From Thermococcus stetteri (GTDB taxonomy: Archaea > Methanobacteriota_B > Thermococci > Thermococcales > Thermococcaceae), in assembly GCF_017873335.1 (NCBI RefSeq), contig NZ_JAGGKB010000002.1:1-64000 (forward strand): DNA of 64,000 nucleotides, given 5' to 3'. Every line of letters begins with the position of its first letter. The stretch's first letter is position 1. Below, piece by piece: positions 30,714 through 43,035 of the stretch. A model generated the notes under the pieces. The model saw only the letters and a list, made by a program, of their open reading frames with translations, did not search any database and was not told the origin of the DNA. A program made the translations under genes and the position numbers.

Positions 30714-30792
30714 ACGGCTTTTTCATTTTTAATCACTCACTACAAAAAGTTTATTTATCTGGGTTACATTCTATTGTATTAGGTGAGGTAAG

Positions 30793-33039
30793 ATGCGGAG
30801 CTTCGGAAAGGTTATCGTGTTACTGCTGTTTCTGCTCCTGGTTCCCTACTCCCAGGCGGCGGTCTTAGACGATGCCCATGAGTTTTTGTACAGTGGGGGA
30901 GAATCCCATGATCAGGTACCACTGAAGGCTCTTGCCTTGATGGCCTTAACATCTAGCCTTGGAAAAGTCCAGGATGAGCCTGATCTTGAGCTTGAGGTTG
31001 AGAAGTTAACTGCAGAATTAGTTGATCTTCAGAATCCCGATGGTGGTTGGGGTAGGTATAAAAATGAGGTAAGCTCTCCCCAAGACACTGCTATGGCCCT
31101 GATAGCTCTGGTTAGGGTGAGGAAGGCAGCTAAAGAATACCCAACTGTTACCCTGCCGGCCACTATACACTCGGCCATAGCCAAGGGCAGGACTTACCTT
31201 ATGGAATCTTTTTCCTCCTATGGGTGGGGCTATACCAAGGCTTCCAAACCCGATTTCTATCCGACTGTTCTCTCAGTCTGGGCCTTGGGCGAAATGGGGT
31301 ATAAATACAGGACAAGCTATCACGTAAAGAAGGCCGTAGATTATCTGGCCACCTTCAAGAACATCCCTCCGGACCACCTGGCTCTTCGCCTTATAGCCTA
31401 TTACTACGTTGGTTACACGAATGTTTCCAATGACCTGGCAAGGTGTAAAGAACTCCTTGAGGGCTCATCTATAAACGCACGCCAGAGGGCAATGTTAACC
31501 TATGCTTTGCTTCTGTATAAGCCGGAATTTGACTTTGAAACTGTGAAGTTTTTGACCATTCTAGAAACAATGGGGGATAAAAACGGAACTTACGTCCTCA
31601 CCAGCGATGAGAAGCCGTTTATGGGGTCTTCTACGCTGGTGGGTACTGCCTACGCGGTTATGGCCTTTGCCCTCCTTACAGACAAAAGGGTAGGTTCAGA
31701 AACGATCATCAACCCGGAGTATAAACTCTGCGATGAGCTCCTCTCCACCAGGTACCCGAATGGCGCTTGGCCGATGTACCCCGGTGGCGAGCCCAATGCC
31801 GAGGCTACTTACTATGCCCTCAGGGCAGTCTCCAAATGCGAGCACGTGCACTCTGAAGAACTAATCTCAGAGGGTGTTTCATGGGCTAAGTCTCACCTTC
31901 CCGTTGCCATGAAGTCTGCGGAGTTCTACAGGACAATAACTGGGGACTACTACTATACAGTCAAAATCCTGGCAGAATTTGGGAACCTCTCTGAAAGCGA
32001 ACGGTCCGCCCTCGTTAGCTTCACCCTCTCAATTAGGGACAAGAGTGGCCTCTGGAGGGGTGCGCTGTTCATCCCACAGCCCTATGAGACGGCCCTCGCA
32101 GTTGACATACTCCAGACGTTGGGCTATAATGGAAAGGAAGTTTCCAATGCTAAAACCTGGCTCCTGAGCCTGAGCAGGGCTGGTTTTGGATTCTCCATCT
32201 CCTATCCAGTCCCCAAGATCGTTACAAAGACCGTACCCACGACTATTGCTGTTATAGAAGCGATATCCGAGCCCGATCTGGTCAAGCCACACCTGGAATG
32301 GCTACTGAGCCAGAGACTTCCGAACGGTGTCTGGGGGGTAATTGGTAAGTGGGTAGACATAAACGGAAATGTTAACTATGGTGAGCCATCAGTTGAGTGG
32401 ACTGTTAGGGTTGTGGAGCTCCTCGCGAGGTTCGGTATAGACGTCGGCAATGACGCGGTCACTTGGGTCATAGACCAGGCGTTAAGTGGGAATCTACGCA
32501 CGGTTGTTGATACTGCCCTCGCCTTGGAATTCATAAGCAATCTTAACCTAATTCCTCCAACGACCCTCTCTGAAGTCATTTTGAACATGACTCCCTCCGG
32601 TTGGGTGCTCAACTACGACGATTGCGAATTGGCCAAAGCGGTTATGGACTATCTTGGGCAGTATGGCTATGACCTTGCTCCAGTGGGGGAGATCGGCTAC
32701 TTTGAGGACGGAAACCACCTGATACTGGTAAAGCTAGGGAAACTCGATGTTTCAAAGTACAACAGCGGAGTGTACGTTTCCTTCGAGAACGGGACTTTGA
32801 AGGTGAACGATAAGATTTACGACGTCTCACCGGTGGTCGTGATAGTTCCGGGTAGGACTATGAACGGCTATGTGCTGATAGTCATGTACTCGCCGGGTGC
32901 AGAGGACATAGTCCTGAACATATTTAAGTACGGGATGTTCAGGTATCTCCACGGAGGCTACATTGTCCTATCTGGTCAGGACGTCAACCACAATGGCAAG
33001 ATCGATGTCAAGGAGATAAAGGTTGTTGCAATGGGGTGA
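30793..33039 (+). CDS. Secreted alpha/alpha-toroid protein with terminal EF-hand/dockerin-like loop
   Basis: Protein of 748 residues: signal peptide ending near SQAA, then many prenyltransferase/squalene-cyclase type repeats (NPDGGWGRYKN, YGWGYTKAS, PNGAWPMYPGG, SGLWRGAL, PNGVWGVIG) forming an alpha toroid to about 600. A beta-rich C-terminal domain ends with DVNHNGKIDVKEIKVV, a calcium loop of the EF-hand or dockerin kind. There is no C-terminal membrane helix. TATA-like GTTTATTTAT lies at 30749-30758. The CetZ gene starts 7 bases after the stop, which ties this protein to the CetZ/pilin-like operon. Confidence 0.75.
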   Translation: MRSFGKVIVLLLFLLLVPYSQAAVLDDAHEFLYSGGESHDQVPLKALALMALTSSLGKVQDEPDLELEVEKLTAELVDLQNPDGGWGRYKNEVSSPQDTAMALIALVRVRKAAKEYPTVTLPATIHSAIAKGRTYLMESFSSYGWGYTKASKPDFYPTVLSVWALGEMGYKYRTSYHVKKAVDYLATFKNIPPDHLALRLIAYYYVGYTNVSNDLARCKELLEGSSINARQRAMLTYALLLYKPEFDFETVKFLTILETMGDKNGTYVLTSDEKPFMGSSTLVGTAYAVMAFALLTDKRVGSETIINPEYKLCDELLSTRYPNGAWPMYPGGEPNAEATYYALRAVSKCEHVHSEELISEGVSWAKSHLPVAMKSAEFYRTITGDYYYTVKILAEFGNLSESERSALVSFTLSIRDKSGLWRGALFIPQPYETALAVDILQTLGYNGKEVSNAKTWLLSLSRAGFGFSISYPVPKIVTKTVPTTIAVIEAISEPDLVKPHLEWLLSQRLPNGVWGVIGKWVDINGNVNYGEPSVEWTVRVVELLARFGIDVGNDAVTWVIDQALSGNLRTVVDTALALEFISNLNLIPPTTLSEVILNMTPSGWVLNYDDCELAKAVMDYLGQYGYDLAPVGEIGYFEDGNHLILVKLGKLDVSKYNSGVYVSFENGTLKVNDKIYDVSPVVVIVPGRTMNGYVLIVMYSPGAEDIVLNIFKYGMFRYLHGGYIVLSGQDVNHNGKIDVKEIKVVAMG

Positions 33040-33046
33040 GGAAAGT

Positions 33047-34222
33047 TTGAAAGCCCTGATAATAGGTGTTGGCCAGTGCGGGACTAAGATAGCCGACCTG
33101 TTTGCACTTGTTGATTTCGATGCAGTGGCCCTAAACACATCAAGGGGGGACCTGGAGTACCTCAAACACATCCCCCAAGATAGGAGAATACTCATAGGAG
33201 AGAGTATCACCGGGGGCAAGGGCGTCAACGCCAACCCCCTGCTCGGAAGGGAGGCCATGAAACGTGACCTGCCCATGGTCATGAAGAAAATCGGGTCAAT
33301 AGTCGGCTACGATGAGGTGGACATCTTTTTCTTAACTTTCGGCTTTGGTGGGGGCACTGGGGCTGGGGGAACCCCCGTTTTGGCCGAGGCGCTCAAAGAA
33401 GAGTACCCCGATTCTCTGGTTGTGGCAATAGGTGCGCTCCCACTGAAAGAAGAGGGAATCCGTCCAACGATAAACGCGGCGATAACGATAGACAAACTGT
33501 CCAAGATAGCCGACTCAATAATAGCCATTGACAACAACAAACTCAGGGACAGTGGCGATGACATAAGCAGGGCATACGAGAAAATAAACTACACCATCGT
33601 TGAGAGGATAGCCTCTCTGCTTGCTCTAGTTGATGTACCAGGCGAGCAAACTCTTGATGCGAGCGACCTGAAGTTCGTCCTCAAGGCCTTCGGCAGTTTT
33701 GCAACTGTCGGATACGCAAAGGCCGAGGCCTCAAAGGTCAAAAACCTATCGAGGCTCATACTCAAGTCCTTTGAAAGCGAAGGCCTCTACCTCGATGCCA
33801 ACATTGAGTCTGCCCTTTACGGTCTTGTCGCGATTCACGGCCCATCCGAGGTACTCAGAGCGAACGATATCTTTGAGGCCCTGGATTATCTAACGTCCAA
33901 GATAAGGGGCAAACAGATATTCAGAGGCTTCTATCCCGACCCGAGGGAGAGGGATGTCGAAGTTGTCACGCTCCTCAGTGGCATATATGAGAGCAAGAGC
34001 ATTGAAGAGATAGTTAGGATAGCGAAGGAGTACGCAAAGTCTTTTATGGAGGCAAAGAACGAGGCTGAAATGAAAAAACGGGAACTGCTCTCTGGGCTGC
34101 CCGATTTTGATGACCTCTACCCTTCAGTTTCCATGGAAGACAGTCCGGGGCTAGCTAAAATACTTGAGGACGTTGATAAGGACATTCCCCCAGTATCTAA
34201 GCTCAGGAGGGTGAACGAGTGA
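33047..34222 (+). CDS. CetZ/FtsZ-family tubulin-like GTPase
   Basis: Cytoskeletal GTPase of 391 residues. The N-terminal IIGVGQCGTKIAD nucleotide strand and the tubulin signature FGFGGGTGAGGTP (about 98-110) are clear, followed by an FtsZ-like core. The signature GGGTGAGG fits the archaeal CetZ branch better than cell-division FtsZ (GGGTGTGA). CetZ proteins affect shape and motility in haloarchaea. TTG 33047 is chosen as start because GGTGAGG lies 5 bases ahead and the protein then begins MKALIIG. The next gene starts inside its stop (GTGA). A tubulin homologue opening a pilin-like operon is unusual. Confidence 0.85.
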   Translation: MKALIIGVGQCGTKIADLFALVDFDAVALNTSRGDLEYLKHIPQDRRILIGESITGGKGVNANPLLGREAMKRDLPMVMKKIGSIVGYDEVDIFFLTFGFGGGTGAGGTPVLAEALKEEYPDSLVVAIGALPLKEEGIRPTINAAITIDKLSKIADSIIAIDNNKLRDSGDDISRAYEKINYTIVERIASLLALVDVPGEQTLDASDLKFVLKAFGSFATVGYAKAEASKVKNLSRLILKSFESEGLYLDANIESALYGLVAIHGPSEVLRANDIFEALDYLTSKIRGKQIFRGFYPDPRERDVEVVTLLSGIYESKSIEEIVRIAKEYAKSFMEAKNEAEMKKRELLSGLPDFDDLYPSVSMEDSPGLAKILEDVDKDIPPVSKLRRVNE

Positions 34223-34833
34223 GTAATATGAAGGACTCTGTAGAGGCAGTCCTTGAGCTGGACGAGAGATCCGTCTACTCCCACATAGCCCACGAAAGTG
34301 CCGAGGACATAATTAGAATAATCTCTTCCATAGATGCGGAGAGGGCTAAACTTAGGGGAGAGGTTATATACTACGCCGATGACTGGGACGACTTAATTCG
34401 GCAGAGGATAGCTAAAGGAAAAAGGCACACTGCTTTCGACTTTTACAATCCTACCCTTTTGGATATATGGGAGGCGAAGGTGAAGGAGATAAAGAAACTA
34501 AAGCACATCGAGGCGGCTGCCTTTGGGATTTACGTAGCTACGTTAGCCTTTTCCGTAATTGCACTCTTTACATACGGGGTCCCAGTCCTGCCCATAGTTT
34601 TGGGGCTTGGTCCGATACTCTTATTTGCGAAGCAGAAAATTAAAGAGAGGATTGACTTAAGTTATTATGAGCTAACTCAGTTTTTTATAGACGAACTTTC
34701 CGAGCTAATTAACCGCTACAACCTTAACCCCGAAAACTACAAATTTAGAATATTCACCGCGGGATACTTTGGAATTGGGACTAAAAAAACTCCTTCTGGC
34801 GTATTCGCATACATACAGCATGATTCCGGATAA
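34219..34833 (+). CDS. Membrane protein of the CetZ/pilin-like operon, unknown
   Basis: Protein of 204 residues (GTG start overlapping the CetZ stop, GGAGGGTG 6 bases ahead). The first 100 residues are helical and charged, probably cytoplasmic (ELDERSVYSHIAHESAEDII). Two membrane helices follow (about 103-136: FGIYVATLAFSVIALFTYG, LPIVLGLGPILLFA), then a soluble tail. No family was recognised. Direct coupling to CetZ makes it a candidate membrane anchor for the tubulin homologue. Confidence 0.7.
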   Translation: MSNMKDSVEAVLELDERSVYSHIAHESAEDIIRIISSIDAERAKLRGEVIYYADDWDDLIRQRIAKGKRHTAFDFYNPTLLDIWEAKVKEIKKLKHIEAAAFGIYVATLAFSVIALFTYGVPVLPIVLGLGPILLFAKQKIKERIDLSYYELTQFFIDELSELINRYNLNPENYKFRIFTAGYFGIGTKKTPSGVFAYIQHDSG

Positions 34834-34845
34834 GAACAGTAATTG

Positions 34846-34873
34846 TTAAAAGGTTCTTCTAATAAATTATTAG
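34846..34873 (+). promoter_or_regulatory. Internal promoter with palindrome before the pilin-like genes
   Basis: TATA-like TTAAAAGG at 34846-34853 is followed by the palindrome CTAATAA-A-TTATTAG at 34859-34873. Both lie in the 53-base gap between the membrane protein and the first pilin-like gene, the widest gap within the CetZ/pilin-like block. The palindrome sits between the TATA box and the expected start, a position typical for an archaeal repressor. This would allow the pilin-like genes to be controlled apart from CetZ. Confidence 0.4.
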
Positions 34874-34886
34874 ACAGGTGGAGATA

Positions 34887-35447
34887 ATGAAAGCCATTAT
34901 GGCTCATAGGGGTCAACTGTCTCTGGAGTTTATGTTGATTGCGGGTGTTATGCTTATAATGTTAGCCTATAGTGTAAATACTGTGACGTTTAGTAGTGAT
35001 TATCCTTCGTCAGAAACGCTGAAAGTCCAGGTTGCTTTGGAAGCGAAGAACGTTGCAAACCAGATCGCTGGCGTGATCAGTCAGGTGTACTCCCAAGGCC
35101 CCGGTTCAAAGGCCGCGATTTACGTGAAGACGTCGATTCTTGATGACCCCGACATGCTTCAGGACGCTTTTGGGTCTTCTAAGGTAAGTATATACCAGGT
35201 GGGGAACGTTGTTCGCGTGACTATAGGAGATACCCCCATTCTAGTGGGCGACAATAAAAACACATTCTCGGCCGTTACCCTTTACAACAGAACTTCAGCA
35301 GGAATCGTAGGGTTATCTTTCCCACAGGGGCTACCGGGAACCCTAAAGGTGGTAGTGGAGTGGAACCCCGATCAACCTGAATCGTGGGAGTTTAATAATA
35401 CCACGAGGGTTCTCAGGATAAACATAAAACCCGGTGGTGGCCCATGA
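34887..35447 (+). CDS. Pilin-like protein 1 (QxSxE class III signal)
   Basis: Protein of 186 residues. The N-terminus MKAIMAHRGQLSLEFMLIAG has the archaeal prepilin form: basic stretch, RG/Q cleavage site, QLSLE with Glu at +5, and a hydrophobic helix. QxSxE is the pattern of pilins processed by the EppA peptidase. The rest is beta-rich with N-x-T/S sites (NRTS, NNTT). GGTGGAG precedes ATG 34887. It is a likely major or minor filament subunit, first of six in a row, and its stop overlaps the next start. Confidence 0.8.
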   Translation: MKAIMAHRGQLSLEFMLIAGVMLIMLAYSVNTVTFSSDYPSSETLKVQVALEAKNVANQIAGVISQVYSQGPGSKAAIYVKTSILDDPDMLQDAFGSSKVSIYQVGNVVRVTIGDTPILVGDNKNTFSAVTLYNRTSAGIVGLSFPQGLPGTLKVVVEWNPDQPESWEFNNTTRVLRINIKPGGGP

Positions 35448-35887
35448 AGAAGGGCCAGCTGAGCATTGATTTCATGTTTGCAGTTGTTTTAGTGATGATA
35501 ACTGTTCTCGACTTAGTCTATATTGCCAGTGGTGAACAGGCCCGCGCTGAAGACTTTGATGTGGCTGCTAAGGTGAAGGCGTTCACTATAGATGTTCGTG
35601 ATACCGTGGTAAAAGTGTACTCCATGGGTGACGGTTACAAAGTAAGGAAGGAGGTACCCCTAAACCTTGGCCCCGGCGACTCGGTATCCGTTGTTCTTGA
35701 TTCCGCCGACAATAAAATTAAAATCCTGGCCAGGGTGGGTGAAAAATCTTACTACTCTGAGCAAAGGGTTCCAGTTCCAGTCTATGAGAGCTCATCTGTT
35801 ACGCTTAACTCCGTCAGCAGGGACTTCTGGATAGTGGCCGAATACAACAAGACGGAGGGGAAGACGTATGTCACCTTCTCCCCGTAG
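35444..35887 (+). CDS. Pilin-like protein 2
   Basis: Protein of 147 residues starting MKKGQLSIDFMFAVVLVMIT: basic residues, KG/Q, then QLSID with Asp at +5 in place of Glu, and a hydrophobic helix. The mature part is a small beta-type domain (KVYSMGDGYKVRKEVPLN). ATG overlaps the preceding stop (ATGA), so the proteins are made in step. Probably a minor pilin. Confidence 0.75.
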   Translation: MKKGQLSIDFMFAVVLVMITVLDLVYIASGEQARAEDFDVAAKVKAFTIDVRDTVVKVYSMGDGYKVRKEVPLNLGPGDSVSVVLDSADNKIKILARVGEKSYYSEQRVPVPVYESSSVTLNSVSRDFWIVAEYNKTEGKTYVTFSP

Positions 35888-36359
35888 AGCCCAGGTTGCA
35901 ATTGAATCTCTGTTTGTGCTGGCTATTGTGCTCACCGGGGTGGCAGTGGTAGTTGGGCCTTACCTATCCTCAAGTGAGGCTGTTTCGGCTGATGTCTACG
36001 TGAAAAACGCCGCCTCGGATGCGTGCGCCTATCTCAATATGGGTGTTCTCCTCAGTGATAGTCTACACCAGCCCCTTAATGAAATACTCCAGCTGTCAAA
36101 CTACTCTCCAGGCACTTTTATGGTTGAGGGCATATCCTCAGAAGGGGAAAAGACTTTAACTGTTACCGTTGTGATGTCCCACAAAGGCTCTCTCCAGTTC
36201 TGGTATGGGAACGGGAAGTCTCAGGAAGACCTCGAGAACGCGTTTAAAGAGTACATCCTGCGCTACATCACTACTTCGAACCCACACATTCCCCGTGAGG
36301 GTGATGAGCTGGTCTTTGGGGAGACCCGGGTTAAAATAAATGTGTACGTGAGAGGGTGA
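35868..36359 (+). CDS. Pilin-like protein 3
   Basis: Protein of 163 residues. MSPSPRRAQVAIESLFVLAI contains a basic pair, A/Q and QVAIE with Glu at +5, followed by a hydrophobic segment. Two Cys-poor beta stretches follow; a single Cys lies at SDACAYLN. It overlaps the preceding gene by 20 bases and has GGAGGGG upstream. Its size fits a pilin. Confidence 0.75.
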   Translation: MSPSPRRAQVAIESLFVLAIVLTGVAVVVGPYLSSSEAVSADVYVKNAASDACAYLNMGVLLSDSLHQPLNEILQLSNYSPGTFMVEGISSEGEKTLTVTVVMSHKGSLQFWYGNGKSQEDLENAFKEYILRYITTSNPHIPREGDELVFGETRVKINVYVRG

Positions 36360-36364
36360 GCGGG

Positions 36365-37849
36365 ATGAGCAGGCGAGGTCAGGTGTTCTCGGTTGATGCT
36401 TTGGTGATGATCGTCATGTTAATCTTTGTCGTTGGCGCTATTACAGACACTTCCTCCGCCCTGAAGAGCGAGATAGCGGGGATGCTTGAGTGGTATGAGA
36501 GGGCAAACATAGCAGAGAACATGCTAGACGTTCTGACTAAAAATCCGGGGGAGCCAGAGGACTGGTATCTGCATCCGGCAGACGCTAGAGTAAGTGGCCT
36601 GAGGGACTCGAACATCTCCTATGCACTAGATTATGAAAAATTCATCGTCTTTAATTCCTCTAAGGAGCAGATTAAAGACAAACTCGTTGAGCTGGCTATG
36701 GGGAAGGACTTTAAGATAGTCAGCTTTATTTCGAACTTTAATGTGGACATCGTGGGAAGTTATCCCAAGGTGTACCTCGACAATGTAACGTTCAGCCGGA
36801 AAGGCGGGAATGTGAGGTTTGACATTCAGGGAAGCCCCAATGGGAACGACTTCTTCTCGATAGAGTCAATAGCGATAACCCGTGGGGGGCAGACTTACAT
36901 TAATTCGAGTATCACAGCACTGGCGGACAACAGCCACCGAAAGATTCCCCTCGTTGGTGGAGATATCGTTGAGTTTGTCACGACATCCACAACCTACATA
37001 ACAACGACTAAGGCCGATATACCCCCTGGACTCTGCAACAGTGCTCTCTCAACTAGCGGCACCTGTGTTATCGGTCCGCTTCCACCTAGAACCAAGTTTA
37101 CTATCTACGTTAACCCCCATAGTAATTTCCAGATACAGATGAACGGACAGGACAACTGGCAGTCAATCAGGCTGACCGCGGGTCAGGGTCAGGTCATTGT
37201 CACAGTTTCTGCCCGTGACAGTCAGCTTCCTCAGATTGTCGCCAACTACACGCCGGCCTCTGTAGTTGAGGAGGACAACAAGCCTGCCTGGGAGTTTGCA
37301 GTCATAAACGGAAGTATTGTGAATGATGAAAACGTAATAAACGCCTCCATGAACCGTTCGCCCTGGATCGAAGTTGAAAAGAGAGTATCAGTCCTAAACA
37401 GGCTGGAATACAACCTCTCCGCTCAGCCCTCTAAGAGTGTTCCTATGGTCTACGGCGTTCTGAGGAGTAACTTACCCGTGGGTGGCTACTTCAAAGTGTC
37501 TGTTCCAAGTGGTGAGGGAGACCTCTCGTTTGTGATTATCTCTGGAACCCAAAAACGGGCGCTCTTCGTATATCGTGAAGCAGGAAGCAAAGTCAGGGCG
37601 GTTATGGTTTACAACAACTCCAGCATAGAGCCGACTTATTACTCTGGCGACGCCAATTCAGTTGCGGTGCCCCTAGAGACACTGTTCGGAAATCCCAGCC
37701 CGGGAGATACGATCGCCATATGGTTTGTCTCCATCAATGGGTGGGAGCGGAGCTCTGTGGAAATGAAGTTTGAACCTTCTCTAGGGGTCGTACTGGCTCC
37801 AAAATTTGATGCGATTATATTAAAACTCTGGGTGTGGGATGACTCATGA
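36365..37849 (+). CDS. Pilin-like surface protein 4 (large)
   Basis: Protein of 494 residues. MSRRGQVFSVDALVMIVMLI starts with RRGQ and a hydrophobic helix with Asp at about +6 after the Gly, then ERANIAENMLDVLTKNPGEP. The latter pattern (AxNxLxxLxxxPG) recurs in the next protein. The long mature part is beta-rich with a Cys pair (PPGLCNSALSTSGTCVIGP) that may form a disulfide. It is far larger than a normal pilin, so it is more likely an adhesin or tip protein anchored like a pilin. ATG 36365 is favoured over GTG 36356. Confidence 0.7.
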   Translation: MSRRGQVFSVDALVMIVMLIFVVGAITDTSSALKSEIAGMLEWYERANIAENMLDVLTKNPGEPEDWYLHPADARVSGLRDSNISYALDYEKFIVFNSSKEQIKDKLVELAMGKDFKIVSFISNFNVDIVGSYPKVYLDNVTFSRKGGNVRFDIQGSPNGNDFFSIESIAITRGGQTYINSSITALADNSHRKIPLVGGDIVEFVTTSTTYITTTKADIPPGLCNSALSTSGTCVIGPLPPRTKFTIYVNPHSNFQIQMNGQDNWQSIRLTAGQGQVIVTVSARDSQLPQIVANYTPASVVEEDNKPAWEFAVINGSIVNDENVINASMNRSPWIEVEKRVSVLNRLEYNLSAQPSKSVPMVYGVLRSNLPVGGYFKVSVPSGEGDLSFVIISGTQKRALFVYREAGSKVRAVMVYNNSSIEPTYYSGDANSVAVPLETLFGNPSPGDTIAIWFVSINGWERSSVEMKFEPSLGVVLAPKFDAIILKLWVWDDS

Positions 37850-39915
37850 GGCGGAGAGGTTTTGTATTCACCCTAGACGCTCTCCTTGCCCTCTTCCTTG
37901 TCATAATCGTCATGGCGAGTGTAGTTACCGTAACTGAGAGCAAGCCGTACTCAACTTACCTCCGCTCCCAGTCTAAGTACGCGGCCGAGAACATCCTTAG
38001 GGTGCTCCAGATTACTCCCCTGAGTCATTTAGTTCCGAAAGAGAAAATCGAAGAATGGGAGACAGGTTCTGAAACCGAAAAAGTACTTTATCTTGATCTC
38101 GTCAGTCCGGACATGCCAGTTCTTGATATAATCGCGACTTACTGGGCGACTGAGCCAATATATCCAAATAGACATCTGAGATCCAAAGCCGAAGAGATAG
38201 CCCGTTATGTCCTAGATCGGGCCCTTAAAGGCTACCGCTATGAGCTTATAATAAACAACTACACTGTGCCATACATAGCTGGGGCGAACGCTAACTACTC
38301 TTTGGCCTCTGACGTTTCATCTGCCACCATAGTGCTAAGCGGCTACAAATACAACCAGACGCCGAGGGGGTATATGGCTAGGGCGTATATAACGAAGGCA
38401 ACTGTTGTCAGGGAAGACCTTTATGGGTGGTTTAGAGTTCTTGCTGGTGCTGATTGGGGGCATAATGGTCCGCTCAACCAGCTTGTTATAAAAAGGGCGA
38501 TAACTTTGCCAAGCGATGCTAGTATAATCTATTCGGATGGAAAGTTCGTCTCTAGGCAGGGGGAGTATATAGATCTGTACATAAACGGTCAGCATGTTGC
38601 GGGAGAATACAACAAAATAGACATTGACCACCTTGAGGGATACTTGCATGGGGGCGACAATACGGTGACTCTCGTGTTCTCCCACGCCAAGGGAAACGAG
38701 ATAGGATCGGCAAGTGGTACCACACTTTACGTTAAGTACCGGAGCAACAGCCTCGATGTTGAAGATCCGGGGTTGGTCAAGGTGTACGATGTTACATCTA
38801 AGACAACTGGAATGATGTATTTATTTGAGATGTTCGTCCCTGGCAATATAACTAGAATAAACATGCACTTCAAAATTAAAAACGTTGGCAACGTTAATCT
38901 CTATTTTGGTCTTGGCGGGAACTTGGTTCCCCTATTAACGAAGAGTGGGAATACCAACGGCGATGCTGTCGTTGATTTCACGGACAACGAAATAAAGGCG
39001 GCATTGAGGAGAATTGGGATTACATATGATAACCTGACAAAGATGGTGTTTGACTTTGTAGTTGGGTTTGATGCTTATTACAAGAAAGGTACATGGTACT
39101 ACGAAGGCGGAGATAACTACAATGATAATGCAAACAGGGAGAGGAAGGTGTATGGATATCCAGATTCATACGTTAGGATTGATTACGTCCCAACTGCAAT
39201 AGTGACAGAATATAGCATTCCTCTCTCGGTGTACTTCCCGTATGGTGATAGCAGGGTGACGTACAACGGTAACGGTCTTCAGGTCACGTATTCTCTCCCC
39301 AGCTATGCCGAGCCGTGGTACGCCGACTTTTGGGTAGGGTATCAGTTCTGGGACTACACAACACAGCAAGAACTGTGGGAAAACGGAAGGATGTTCTACT
39401 CTGGTCCCCTGGGAAGGTATGCTATTAGAGTCGCCTATACGAGGCTCTACGACTGGATGATGGTTCCTGGACAGCAGAATACCTTTGAGATTAGGATGAC
39501 AAACGGCGATTCACGAGTTAGGGATGGGGAGACTAGGGGTATTATAAAATACTTTATAAGGGGCTATGTGGGCTATGGTGACATCTTCCCGTACCTGATG
39601 CAGGGCTATCCGAACTATAAGGGGTACAACCTGACCTATTACTACACCGATGGAACGGGCACGTATGAGAGCACAGTTAAAATTGGTCAGCCACCATATT
39701 ATTCCCTGTCAATATACGACCTTGATCCCACCAAGTATGCAGTTGACGATGCCATATTCAGGCTGTTTGAACGTCTCGGTGGAAAGGGAACATCCGATTC
39801 GCCAATTGAGGTGAGGCTTCCTGAGAGCGTTAACATAGACTTTGCACCGATGGGCAACATACCGGGACTGTTTGAACCAATTCAAATAACGCTCCGCGTC
39901 TGGAGGGAGGGCTGA
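37846..39915 (+). CDS. Pilin-like surface protein 5 (very large)
   Basis: Protein of 689 residues: MRRRGFVFTLDALLALFLVI, then AAENILRVLQITPLSHLVP, the same layout as protein 4. The exterior has several beta domains, aromatic-rich segments (YQFWDYTTQQELWENG) and many N-x-T/S sites, as expected for a glycosylated surface protein. Start and stop overlap both neighbours (ATGA and TGATG). No enzyme motif is recognised. Confidence 0.7.
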   Translation: MRRRGFVFTLDALLALFLVIIVMASVVTVTESKPYSTYLRSQSKYAAENILRVLQITPLSHLVPKEKIEEWETGSETEKVLYLDLVSPDMPVLDIIATYWATEPIYPNRHLRSKAEEIARYVLDRALKGYRYELIINNYTVPYIAGANANYSLASDVSSATIVLSGYKYNQTPRGYMARAYITKATVVREDLYGWFRVLAGADWGHNGPLNQLVIKRAITLPSDASIIYSDGKFVSRQGEYIDLYINGQHVAGEYNKIDIDHLEGYLHGGDNTVTLVFSHAKGNEIGSASGTTLYVKYRSNSLDVEDPGLVKVYDVTSKTTGMMYLFEMFVPGNITRINMHFKIKNVGNVNLYFGLGGNLVPLLTKSGNTNGDAVVDFTDNEIKAALRRIGITYDNLTKMVFDFVVGFDAYYKKGTWYYEGGDNYNDNANRERKVYGYPDSYVRIDYVPTAIVTEYSIPLSVYFPYGDSRVTYNGNGLQVTYSLPSYAEPWYADFWVGYQFWDYTTQQELWENGRMFYSGPLGRYAIRVAYTRLYDWMMVPGQQNTFEIRMTNGDSRVRDGETRGIIKYFIRGYVGYGDIFPYLMQGYPNYKGYNLTYYYTDGTGTYESTVKIGQPPYYSLSIYDLDPTKYAVDDAIFRLFERLGGKGTSDSPIEVRLPESVNIDFAPMGNIPGLFEPIQITLRVWREG

Positions 39916-42269
39916 TGAGGAGGAGGGGCTTTTTCATAAACTCCGCTGTCATAGTCCTAATAATCCCTCTTCTTCTCCTTTTGGCAACCTATGAAGATGT
40001 TTCCTCTTTTATAGTCCACTCCCAGAGCGTCAGAGTTCAATCGGAGAGGACATACAACGTGGTTAATTCTGTCACTCTGGACTTCCAGAAAGCTCTGAAG
40101 ATATCGGGAAAGAGGGCATTGGTCGCTGCCGTTGATTACGTGGTGAACACGGGTAACTTCCTTAACACCGATGCCGACAAGGCTATTAAAGAACTTGTCC
40201 TTCAAGGTCAGTTGCCTGGTGTGAATTATGATTTTGATAGAGTTATGAAAGATCAAAGCATCAAGACATGGGTGAGTAATATATCTGCTATTCTGAAATC
40301 CCAGGGTTTCAGAGTTCAGGAATCTCCTGATGAGGTTATTAACAACATTGACATGACAGTTGCACTCCTCGATGCTTTTACCGTTGTGATAAAGGCAAGG
40401 ATAACCAATATAACAATAGTTGACATGCTCGGACAAGTTGTTTACCAGGGTCCAATACCCTCTTCGGGAGACTATCTTTACGCTTTTATAGATATTAATG
40501 GCCTCGAGGACCCACTTCACTCCGCAAAATCTAGGGGCAAATATTTCAGATCAATACAGGCCTGTGAGTATCCGTATCCCAAGCTAATACCTCCGTTTTC
40601 ACTGGCAAACGGTACCGGACAGGGGAGTGGGGTTGTCGTTGGAAGGTTTGGAACAGAGCTGGAGTACAATTTAACTCATGTCTGGGATTTAGACAATGAT
40701 TACATCACAAACCTCACAATAAATGGGGTGAAGGTTACGACTGATGCGGTGATCCTCAAGAATGACGATAGAGGTGTGCTGGTACTTGGGAATGGAGAAT
40801 CAGAGGTTTCAAATTGGTGTTCCTCTCTTGGTTACAGAATAAACATAACTATCAGAAACGATGTTGGAATAAATCTGGACGATTACCAGATACCTCTTTT
40901 AATTTCAGATTCCAAGGGGTTCACAAGTGATATGCTCAACTTCATCTTTTCTCATACTCAGACAAGCTCTGATTCAGACGTTTTCAGAAAGGGCGCTTCA
41001 GTTGAGATATACGACTCAAACTGCAATCCCGTTCCATTCTGGATTGAATACTGGGATCCCGATAATAAAAAGGCCTTGATATGGATAAGGGATACAATAC
41101 CCAAGGGGGCTCAAGAGACGTACTCCCTCTACTTTGGTTCAGGTGCACTAACTAAGGGAAATGGAGAAACAGTGTTTGAATTTTTTACTGGCAATATTAC
41201 TATCAATGGGGGCGATGAGGTTCCATATTTGCTCACTGCATCTCCTTTAAATCTCAATGGAGGATTTGCAGTTAGATTCCGGATGAAAGCTGATGGCGAT
41301 TACTCTGACTGGGATAGCGGTATTGGTGTTGAGGATTCTAGTGGTAGAGTCCTCCTATTTACTGATGATACTACTAAAAGCGGGGATGGGCTGGCTATCC
41401 ATAGGCCGTGGTGGAGGTACTTGTCATATACTACTGCTAGATATCCAATAACTACATATCATGTATACGAAGCATTGATGAAGCCTTATTCAAGTACTGA
41501 GAAAGACTCCAAGTTTAAAGACATAACTGATATGAGAGTCAATGATGATTACACGCGAAACTGGCAGGATCCTCTTACCAATATTTACCTCGTTACGGAT
41601 AGTGAGAAAAAGAAGAGAAAGACAACCTATGAGTGGGTGCTAGTTAGAAAATATGATATCTCTTCTGACCTACTGGAGGATCCAAACTTCAATGGAATAA
41701 ACTTCTACTGGAGAACCACCACCCTCGACGAAGTTATTGAAAGAAAACCAAGCAACCCTGGTTCCCCGGGTGGTATGACCAGTGCATCAGTCTATGACCT
41801 CCAGCCGCTAATTGACTGCCTCCTTGGGAACCGCTACTTTGCCATCGAGGACGGCTGGTCTTTCTTCGAGCGCCTGGAAGGCGGTACCCACAACCATAAT
41901 AGGTATGTCCGGCTGGCCCATCAGATGCAGGACAAACTCGATTACAAGCCTGAGAAGGGATACTACCCGATAGGACTTGTCAGCTTTATGATACCACACG
42001 CGGTTTACGACGAGAGGCTCTTTAATGTCATGAGCTCCAACGGAATACCCGTCGAGGAAGGTCAGAGCAGTGCGGACTACTACTTCCTCGACTACTACTT
42101 TGGAAGCGGCCCCAAAGTCAGTGGAAACAGGGTTTGGGGTATCTCAAGGGGCAGTTCACCGCTAATTGGGAACCTGGGGGAGATACCCTTCTTCCTCGAC
42201 AAGACAACCGCATGCGAGCTACTGGGCTGGCAGGGTGCACTCCAGTTGGCGGGTTACAACTGTTCGTGA
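39915..42269 (+). CDS. Pilin-like surface protein 6 with DUF2341-like domain
   Basis: Largest of the set, 784 residues. MRRRGFFINSAVIVLIIPLL has the basic start and hydrophobic helix but no +5 acid. A segment near 300-420 (GYRINITIRNDVGINLDDYQ, then WIEYWDPDNKKALIWIRD and YSLYFGSG) matches the DUF2341 pattern found in archaeal surface and binding proteins. The last 150 residues form another domain (DGWSFFERLEGGTHNHNRYV). The codon use is AT-richer in the middle third than at the end. It may be the outermost or ligand-binding component. Confidence 0.7.
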   Translation: MRRRGFFINSAVIVLIIPLLLLLATYEDVSSFIVHSQSVRVQSERTYNVVNSVTLDFQKALKISGKRALVAAVDYVVNTGNFLNTDADKAIKELVLQGQLPGVNYDFDRVMKDQSIKTWVSNISAILKSQGFRVQESPDEVINNIDMTVALLDAFTVVIKARITNITIVDMLGQVVYQGPIPSSGDYLYAFIDINGLEDPLHSAKSRGKYFRSIQACEYPYPKLIPPFSLANGTGQGSGVVVGRFGTELEYNLTHVWDLDNDYITNLTINGVKVTTDAVILKNDDRGVLVLGNGESEVSNWCSSLGYRINITIRNDVGINLDDYQIPLLISDSKGFTSDMLNFIFSHTQTSSDSDVFRKGASVEIYDSNCNPVPFWIEYWDPDNKKALIWIRDTIPKGAQETYSLYFGSGALTKGNGETVFEFFTGNITINGGDEVPYLLTASPLNLNGGFAVRFRMKADGDYSDWDSGIGVEDSSGRVLLFTDDTTKSGDGLAIHRPWWRYLSYTTARYPITTYHVYEALMKPYSSTEKDSKFKDITDMRVNDDYTRNWQDPLTNIYLVTDSEKKKRKTTYEWVLVRKYDISSDLLEDPNFNGINFYWRTTTLDEVIERKPSNPGSPGGMTSASVYDLQPLIDCLLGNRYFAIEDGWSFFERLEGGTHNHNRYVRLAHQMQDKLDYKPEKGYYPIGLVSFMIPHAVYDERLFNVMSSNGIPVEEGQSSADYYFLDYYFGSGPKVSGNRVWGISRGSSPLIGNLGEIPFFLDKTTACELLGWQGALQLAGYNCS

Positions 42270-42279
42270 GGTGAGATCA

Positions 42280-43035
42280 ATGGACATTGAGGAGCTCCTA
42301 TACAGAGTCGGTGAGCTTGTAGAGGACACGGTAAAGCGGCTTGGATCTTCGACAGTTCGTTTTCTGTTTCCCCGTCCTTCTAAAGTTCCTCCTAGTTCCA
42401 GTGCCTTAGTCCGCCTATTTAAAAAGGCCCTTACGCCGCATGAAATTTTGAGTTTGCGGGTGCAGTTAGCTTTCTTGGCATACCTGGTCGTTGCGCTGAT
42501 TTTAGTCTTTCTAAATCTCCCCTGGATTTTCCTCGCTGTGAGTTTGCTCTATATCCTCTACCTCCGCTATCTTCTCGTGACATATCAGGAGTTTATTCTG
42601 GAATATTCCGCGTACAAGACCTTCTATTTTTGGCTGTCTATTATTGCAATTTTTGCCTACGGCGGGTACTTTGCGGTTAGAAAGTACGCCTTCAGCCCCT
42701 ATCATTTTTACCTGTATATCCTTTTGGTCTTAGCTGTAGTACTGTCTTTCCGCTATTACTTCAAGTCCCGCTACGGCAGGGACTACACCTACGGTGTCGT
42801 TGAAGAAGTCAAGAACGACCTGGTTAAAGTCTTCGTCCACGACGACATAGCGGCAAACGTTAAACCCGGCTACTACTGGGTGCCAGCGGTTCCCGATGCG
42901 GAGCCAGGCCTCGTGGTTAAGCTCCTCGTTGAGGAGAGGGCGTTCAGGAGCGCTAGACCAGTGAGAATACTGGAAGTGTATCTAGAGAGTCAATCTTCCC
43001 AGACCGAGACCGAACCAAAGGAGGAGACCGAGTGA
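42280..43035 (+). CDS. DUF2101-like multi-pass membrane protein
   Basis: Protein of 251 residues: a short amphipathic N-terminus (MDIEELLYRVGELVEDTVKR), four likely membrane helices (about 66-170), and a soluble beta-type C-terminus (VVEEVKNDLVKVFVHDDIAA, AVPDAEPGLVVKLLVEERAF). The layout fits DUF2101. GGTGAG precedes ATG 42280, 10 bases after the last pilin-like gene, so it closes the operon. It could serve as membrane platform or quality-control factor; no ATPase partner is encoded nearby. Confidence 0.75.
   Translation: MDIEELLYRVGELVEDTVKRLGSSTVRFLFPRPSKVPPSSSALVRLFKKALTPHEILSLRVQLAFLAYLVVALILVFLNLPWIFLAVSLLYILYLRYLLVTYQEFILEYSAYKTFYFWLSIIAIFAYGGYFAVRKYAFSPYHFYLYILLVLAVVLSFRYYFKSRYGRDYTYGVVEEVKNDLVKVFVHDDIAANVKPGYYWVPAVPDAEPGLVVKLLVEERAFRSARPVRILEVYLESQSSQTETEPKEETE

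What the first reader, a model, noticed from the sequence alone, without database searches (positions are those of the whole stretch)
30793..43035. CetZ-linked pilin-like superoperon: candidate new surface or motility system
Seen: a 12-kb same-strand run encodes a secreted alpha-toroid with a calcium loop, a CetZ/FtsZ-like GTPase, a two-helix membrane protein coupled to it by GTGA, six successive proteins with prepilin-like N-termini (147 to 784 residues) and a DUF2101-like membrane protein. Most junctions overlap (ATGA, GTGA, TGATG). Known: CetZ proteins act in haloarchaeal shape and motility; QxSxE prepilins are processed by EppA. Inference: a tubulin homologue may position or drive assembly of a large pilin-anchored surface complex. 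No PilB/FlaI ATPase or PilC/FlaJ platform is present, so either one is borrowed or assembly differs. I know of no described system with this gene set.
Basis: partly seen in the sequence, partly recalled or inferred. Interest (0 to 1): 0.85.

Follow-up and report, generated by a model that had tools for sequence, protein, structure and literature searches.

The report
CetZ-linked pilus-tip operon of Thermococcaceae
This 12-kb gene row is a real, family-wide operon that encodes the tip (minor pilins and sugar-binding-type adhesins) of an archaeal type IV pilus together with a tubulin relative; the gene set is already published and its motor is simply encoded elsewhere in the genome, but its tip genes prove to be swapped between species like cassettes.

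Summary
In detail: one same-strand, overlapping run of alpha-toroid, CetZ, a two-helix membrane protein (called P3 here), six prepilin-like proteins and DUF2101. Its order is kept in 29/29 genus loci (one has lost the toroid) and in five further genera. The claim that the system is undescribed fails: Makarova 2016 (PMC4858521, crediting Szabo 2007) and Brown & Duggin 2023 (PMC9856176) describe this Thermococcales locus as clade 1 type IV pilus genes with CetZ and a squalene-cyclase-like protein. "No ATPase or platform" is also resolved. This genome has a conserved engine locus (DUF515, PilB-type ATPase, two TadC-like proteins) and EppA elsewhere, and genomes without FlaI keep the operon. Best reading: this is the minor-pilin/tip-adhesin operon of a two-locus type IV pilus, with CetZ plus P3 as an accessory membrane-linked cytoskeletal module that positions or scaffolds the machine. 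CetZ is unlikely to be its motor, because M. jannaschii has EppA, DUF515 and DUF2341 but no CetZ_C. I found no published report of one result: CetZ is 86% conserved while the distal pilins and the toroid are replaced as blocks with sharp DNA breakpoints.

The parts
30742..30757 (+). BRE/TATA-like promoter (caaaaag-tttattta) 36-51 bases before the first gene
   Evidence: Read directly from the sequence; inference, no transcript data
30793..33039 (+). Secreted alpha-alpha toroid protein (arCOG03396 'squalene cyclase'-like; the arCOG number comes from the literature), probably non-catalytic
   Evidence: Profile match to squalene-hopene cyclase structures E 8e-17; no DxDD catalytic motif in 29/29 family members; signal peptide visible; cleanly lost in G003
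33050..34222 (+). CetZ, tubulin-superfamily GTPase (TTG start at 33050)
   Evidence: Tubulin 9e-31 and CetZ_C 1e-16; GGGTGAG and LDxSDLK kept in 30/30; C-terminal GLPDF[DE]DxY motif in 30/30; 3 tubulin-family genes in the genome, only this one with CetZ_C
34219..34833 (+). P3: membrane protein with a conserved cytoplasmic-type N-terminal domain and a two-helix hairpin; candidate CetZ membrane tether
   Evidence: 46 of 62 invariant columns lie in residues 1-88; AF2 pLDDT 80, pTM 0.75; no fold match in the PDB; found in all near-complete Thermococcaceae genomes searched but one, effectively absent outside the family
34878..35447 (+). Minor pilin 1 (GQLSLEF, QxSxE type)
   Evidence: Class III signal 7.9e-05; signature 30/30
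35444..35887 (+). Minor pilin 2 (GQLSIDF)
   Evidence: Signature 30/30; overlaps its neighbour
35868..36359 (+). Minor pilin 3 (AQVAIES)
   Evidence: Signature 30/30; weak class III signal hit at C2:35883
36356..37849 (+). Large tip pilin 4 (GQVFSVDA), cassette-swapped
   Evidence: Signature 30/30 and 20 sequence groups at 60% identity; some alleles carry a bactofilin-like beta-helix
37846..39915 (+). Large tip pilin 5 (GFVFTLDA), cassette-swapped
   Evidence: Signature 30/30; tree conflicts with the CetZ tree
39915..42269 (+). Tip adhesin: long pilin helix without the acidic residue at position 5, DUF2341 and a lectin-like beta-sandwich
   Evidence: DUF2341 1.7e-15; AF2 helix 4-79, pLDDT 83; matches to ConA-like/lectin domains, E 8e-06 and weaker
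42280..43035 (+). DUF2101 multi-pass membrane protein with a C-terminal domain
   Evidence: PF09874 1.3e-83; found only in Thermococcaceae; unlinked in G072

Best explanation
The block is the minor-pilin and tip-adhesin operon of the Thermococcaceae clade 1 (EppA-type) type IV pilus, a machine encoded at several loci. Steps inferred: EppA, encoded beside the archaellum operon, cleaves the six prepilins. The PilB-type ATPase and two TadC-like platform proteins, encoded with DUF515 in a separate engine locus, push a priming complex made of these minor pilins out of the membrane. The three large ones, ending in the DUF2341/lectin-fold protein, form the tip adhesin, and small stand-alone class III pilins build the shaft. 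CetZ polymerises under the membrane and is probably held there by P3. It positions or scaffolds the machine; it does not power it. The toroid is a secreted accessory, probably binding and not catalysing. The toroid and tip alleles are exchanged between species by recombination while CetZ and P3 stay fixed. This fits a constant cytoplasmic chassis with a variable recognition surface. Shown: gene content, synteny, engine and EppA presence, the FlaI dissociation, the lectin-like fold, block replacement. Inferred: the CetZ-P3 contact, positioning, tip location, and adhesion or DNA uptake as the use.
For: Operon order toroid-CetZ-P3-six pilins-DUF2101 in 29/29 genus loci, one lacking the toroid, while the downstream flank is kept in only 5; also in genera g11-g15. 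Engine locus C1:695114-701477: DUF515 2e-125, T2SSE 7e-53, T2SSF 2e-23 and 1e-17; ATPase in 41/41 and EppA in 41/41. FlaI-less near-complete genomes keep EppA and engine (G002, G008, G010, G018, G061), and G008, G010 and G018 keep the whole operon. EppA and DUF515 ring only in M. jannaschii among 14 controls; DUF2341 rings there too. Stand-alone 62-70 aa class III pilins in the genome. DUF2341, epd genes and eppA are needed for transformation in M. maripaludis (PMC10133366). CetZ1 affects archaellum positioning in Haloferax (PMC11621097). Lectin-type fold. Block replacement. P3 invariants; CetZ C-terminal motif.
Against: No transcript, protein or imaging data from any Thermococcales. The ATPase was not placed on a tree, so 'clade 1' rests on the literature plus co-markers. 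P3 has no known fold relative and no complex was predicted. The tip location of the large pilins is by analogy. DUF515 in this assembly has a frameshift in a short GA run, so one engine gene may be damaged or mis-sequenced here. The DUF2341 adhesin is lacking in some cassettes.
Confidence: 0.8

Rival explanations
1. A new surface machine in which CetZ polymerisation itself drives export or assembly, with no PilB/TadC engine.
For: No engine gene lies inside the operon; CetZ is by far its most conserved member.
Against: A dedicated ATPase/TadC engine is in this genome, with the ATPase and EppA in every genus genome. M. jannaschii has the related parts but no CetZ_C.
Confidence: 0.04
2. The operon serves the archaellum: its pilins are archaellum accessories, use FlaI/FlaJ, and CetZ positions the archaellum as CetZ1 does in Haloferax.
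For: EppA lies just downstream of the archaellum operon; CetZ1 affects archaellum proteins in Haloferax.
Against: Near-complete genomes without FlaI keep EppA and the engine ATPase, and those whose locus was read keep the whole operon.
Confidence: 0.06
3. CetZ is only a co-transcribed neighbour (shape or metabolism) with no physical role in the pilus.
For: CetZ is near-invariant while the pilins swap; CetZs of other archaeal orders outside Halobacteria are not pili-linked (PMC9856176).
Against: Linkage with overlapping start/stop kept across all genera sampled; an independent CetZ2-pilB2/C2 linkage in haloarchaea (PMC9856176).
Confidence: 0.15
4. The divergence of tip genes is plain fast evolution and not allele exchange.
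For: All extracellular members evolve fast.
Against: Sharp breakpoints: 92% DNA identity, then no alignment over about 6 kb, then 89%. Different blocks are replaced in different pairs, and trees conflict (PIL5 p-AU 1e-46; groups chosen after seeing identities).
Confidence: 0.08

Closest known systems
Thermococcales cetZ/type IV pilus-like locus (Makarova 2016 PMC4858521; Brown & Duggin 2023 PMC9856176; Szabo 2007 as cited there)
   Same: Same locus: FtsZ-family CetZ, squalene-cyclase-like protein, five to six pilins, two large envelope proteins with DUF2341 described, order conserved.
   Different: Nothing in gene content. The allele-block exchange, natural toroid loss, FlaI dissociation and P3 analysis were not found in the passages read.
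Methanococcus maripaludis epd/eppA type IV-like pilus (PMC10133366, PMC3875500)
   Same: EppA, many minor pilins, a DUF2341 protein, further epd genes (epdJ-L) at a second site; by the literature, the same clade 1 system.
   Different: No CetZ_C in the related M. jannaschii; DUF2101 absent there.
Haloarchaeal cetZ2-pilB2/C2 locus (PMC9856176)
   Same: A CetZ next to type IV pilus genes.
   Different: Engine genes lie in the same locus; a different ATPase clade (4F) and a different CetZ subfamily.
Sulfolobus Ups pili (PMC7064770)
   Same: Variable pilin regions decide which cells are recognised.
   Different: There a short region of the pilin UpsA varies; here whole large pilins are replaced.
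VARTIG modules of Thermococcales (PMC8416519)
   Same: Hypervariable surface-protein locus shaped by recombination in the same order.
   Different: Ig-domain proteins in recently acquired islands; no CetZ.

Membership tests
Archaeal clade 1 (EppA-type) type IV pilus | Dedicated prepilin peptidase EppA (PF06819) in the genome | tested here: met
   41/41 genus genomes; only M. jannaschii among 14 controls
Archaeal clade 1 (EppA-type) type IV pilus | Secretion ATPase with two TadC-like platform proteins | tested here: met
   L076 ATPase and two T2SSF proteins in a row, in a different locus from the pilins
Archaeal clade 1 (EppA-type) type IV pilus | Several class III signal peptide minor pilins in one locus | tested here: met
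   Six N-terminal signatures, 30/30 each
Archaeal clade 1 (EppA-type) type IV pilus | Large DUF2341 adhesin | tested here: met
   39915-42269, 1.7e-15
Archaeal clade 1 (EppA-type) type IV pilus | Stand-alone small (~70 aa) class III pilins | tested here: met
   62 aa at C2:235 kb, 68 aa at C3:253 kb; a 70-aa frame at C1:191 kb
Archaeal clade 1 (EppA-type) type IV pilus | ATPase falls in clade 1 of the secretion-ATPase tree | not tested
   No tree built; assignment taken from PMC4858521
CetZ family | Tubulin GTPase domain plus CetZ C-terminal domain | tested here: met
   108 and 61 bits, above cut-offs
CetZ family | GTP-dependent polymerisation | not testable with these tools
   G-box and T7-loop motifs intact in 30/30
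Archaellum | Depends on FlaI/FlaJ | tested here: not met
   FlaI-less genomes keep EppA, the engine ATPase and, where the locus was read, the whole operon
Squalene/hopene cyclase (enzyme) | Catalytic DxDD motif | tested here: not met
   0 of 29 toroid orthologues; the fold resemblance stands

The most novel reading that the evidence does not exclude
A membrane-tethered CetZ module (CetZ with its C-terminal GLPDFDDxY motif plus P3, a membrane protein of no known fold) is a fixed chassis onto which Thermococcaceae plug exchangeable pilus-tip cassettes. That would make it a family-wide, recombination-driven recognition system whose tubulin homologue directly organises a type IV pilus base.
Probability: 0.3. 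Interest if true: 0.75.

Novelty: already known. Interest (0 to 1): 0.42.

Why it matters
The gene linkage is known but untested in any Thermococcales, several of which are genetically tractable and naturally competent. Sorting out that the operon has its own engine elsewhere, is independent of the archaellum, and pairs a near-invariant tubulin homologue with swappable adhesins turns a vague link into clear tests: does CetZ place pili, is P3 its membrane receptor, and do tip alleles set partner, virus or surface specificity? If CetZ organises a pilus base, that would be a direct cytoskeletal role for an archaeal tubulin outside cell shape.

Tried and rejected
ATPase-free assembly: rejected, engine found. 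The first peptidase query (PF06847) gave a sub-threshold hit; PF06819 showed that gene to be EppA. The 540-aa ATPase next to EppA is FlaI and the 602-aa weak hit is a PIN-domain ATPase, not the pilus engine. P3 fold search gave nothing significant, nor did family scans. The tip-adhesin profile search in the PDB found nothing meaningful by sequence; the fold search did. An AU test on PIL4 for one clade was not significant (p 0.057) while PIL5 was. VARTIG was considered and set aside as a different locus. CetZ-P3 complex modelling was not available.

Full report
What is there. The window lies in a 2.03-Mb genome in 7 contigs whose close relatives in the named genome collection are Thermococcus. 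The 12-kb run was confirmed gene by gene: secreted toroid, CetZ, a two-helix membrane protein (P3), six proteins with prepilin-like N-termini and DUF2101, most junctions overlapping. A BRE/TATA-like site lies just before the first gene. In relatives the gap between P3 and the first pilin shrinks to a few bases or overlaps, which favours one transcript; this is inference, as no RNA data were available.

Conservation. Of 61 genomes searched with CetZ, those of the genus carry one close orthologue (81-91% identity in the loci listed), except a few incomplete ones. In 29/29 fetched genus loci the order from CetZ to DUF2101 is the same; the toroid is missing in one (G003), where only 134 bases separate the radical-SAM gene from CetZ. 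The downstream neighbour MarC is kept in only 5 of 29, so this is more than general synteny. Representatives of genera g11 to g15 show the same block; in G072 DUF2101 has moved about 36 kb away while the toroid, CetZ, P3 and the pilins stay together. P3 and DUF2101 are spread through the family and effectively absent from the other families of the class; one weak P3 hit (E 5e-4) outside the family is probably chance. Contigs from the named collection repeat the picture wherever they are long enough.

It is already described. Makarova et al. 2016 (PMC4858521) model clade 1 type IV pili on a Thermococcus locus and note the FtsZ-family GTPase and squalene cyclase in it, crediting Szabo 2007. Brown & Duggin 2023 (PMC9856176) report that all analysed Thermococcales cetZ regions are pili-associated with conserved organisation and suggest that CetZ scaffolds pilus assembly. 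Its novelty as a gene set is therefore nil.

Where the motor is. The genome holds an engine locus at C1:695114-701477: DUF515 (with weak RcpC/CpaB similarity), a secreted protein, a 683-aa secretion ATPase and two T2SSF proteins. EppA sits next to the archaellum operon. ATPase and EppA are in 41/41 genus genomes. Near-complete genomes without FlaI (G002, G008, G010, G018, G061) keep EppA and the engine ATPase, and the three whose locus was read in full (G008, G010, G018) keep the whole operon, so the operon goes with this engine and not with the archaellum. Among 14 control genomes EppA and DUF515 ring only in M. jannaschii, and DUF2341 rings there too, but CetZ_C does not. The related methanogen system thus works without CetZ, which makes CetZ an accessory, not a motor. 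In M. maripaludis the matching genes, DUF2341 included, are needed for DNA uptake (PMC10133366).

Parts. CetZ keeps its G-box and T7-loop motifs in 30/30 and has a constant C-terminal GLPDF[DE]DxY motif before a variable tail, which looks like a partner-binding peptide. P3 has 46 of its 62 invariant columns in residues 1-88, and basic residues on both flanks of the hairpin suggest that both ends are cytoplasmic. Its model (pLDDT 80) has no PDB match. That P3 anchors CetZ is inference. The last pilin folds as a 76-residue N-terminal helix plus beta domains and matches ConA-like/lectin domains (E 8e-06 and weaker). It lacks the acidic residue at position 5, as do tip pilins such as GspK (own knowledge), which fits a tip role. 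The toroid resembles squalene-hopene cyclases but has no DxDD in 29/29, so it is probably not a cyclase.

Cassette exchange. Median pairwise identity is 86% for CetZ, 62% for P3 and 54% for DUF2101, but 31-49% for the pilins and 35% for the toroid, against 89% for the flanking radical-SAM gene. At 60% identity CetZ and P3 form one group each, PIL4 20 groups and PIL6 19. Between G013 and G032 DNA identity is 92% from the radical-SAM gene into PIL3, then apart from a short PIL3/PIL4 junction (68%) nothing aligns over PIL4-PIL6, then 89% resumes in DUF2101. Other pairs break elsewhere: PIL2 onward in L041/L043, PIL4 in L051/L053, the toroid alone in L036/L038. Trees conflict (groups were picked after seeing identities, and one PIL4 test was not significant). 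N-termini are kept (46-61%) while the rest diverges (26-45%). This is best read as recombination of recognition modules, comparable in spirit to Ups pilin specificity (PMC7064770) and to VARTIG (PMC8416519). I found no published report of it in this locus; the library is open-access only and the searches were few.

Verdict. A real and ordinary-in-kind operon, already described; the "no ATPase, new assembly" reading is refuted. What remains open is what CetZ does, and the swappable tip is the most useful new lead.

Noticed in passing
G021:C1 1094609-1098205 (L080:8610-12206) and 17 other genus genomes: The pilus engine ATPase frame is 1071-1234 aa in 18 of 41 genomes against 616-699 in the rest, with the match ending near profile position 238: probably an intein in the ATPase.
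   Followed up: no
L076:6920-7115 (G000:C1 about 694920-695115): DUF515, first gene of the engine locus, is frameshifted in a short GA run in this assembly, while relatives have an open 484-487 aa frame; either a sequencing error or a real lesion.
   Followed up: partly
L079:7263-7451 (G000:C2 about 235262-235450): A 62-aa stand-alone class III pilin (probable major pilin) lies about 1 kb upstream of an ftsZ gene, with one gene between them.
   Followed up: no
L041/L054, L036/L038: The toroid gene is replaced on its own in some species pairs, independently of the pilin block, so the operon has at least two exchangeable modules.
   Followed up: partly
L034 PIL4 (289-381), L037 PIL4 (361-447): Some large-pilin alleles carry a bactofilin-like beta-helix stretch, probably an extracellular stalk.
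   Followed up: no
G058:C37:12556-16637: A genome outside the phylum has three CetZ/FtsZ-like genes in a row (up to 38% identity to the query) and seven tubulin-family hits in all.
   Followed up: no
L113:4468-6576, L115:15613-17694, L116:15786-17870 (genus g12): An extra secreted protein of about 700 aa sits directly upstream of the toroid in the three genus g12 loci read, and not in the other genera.
   Followed up: partly
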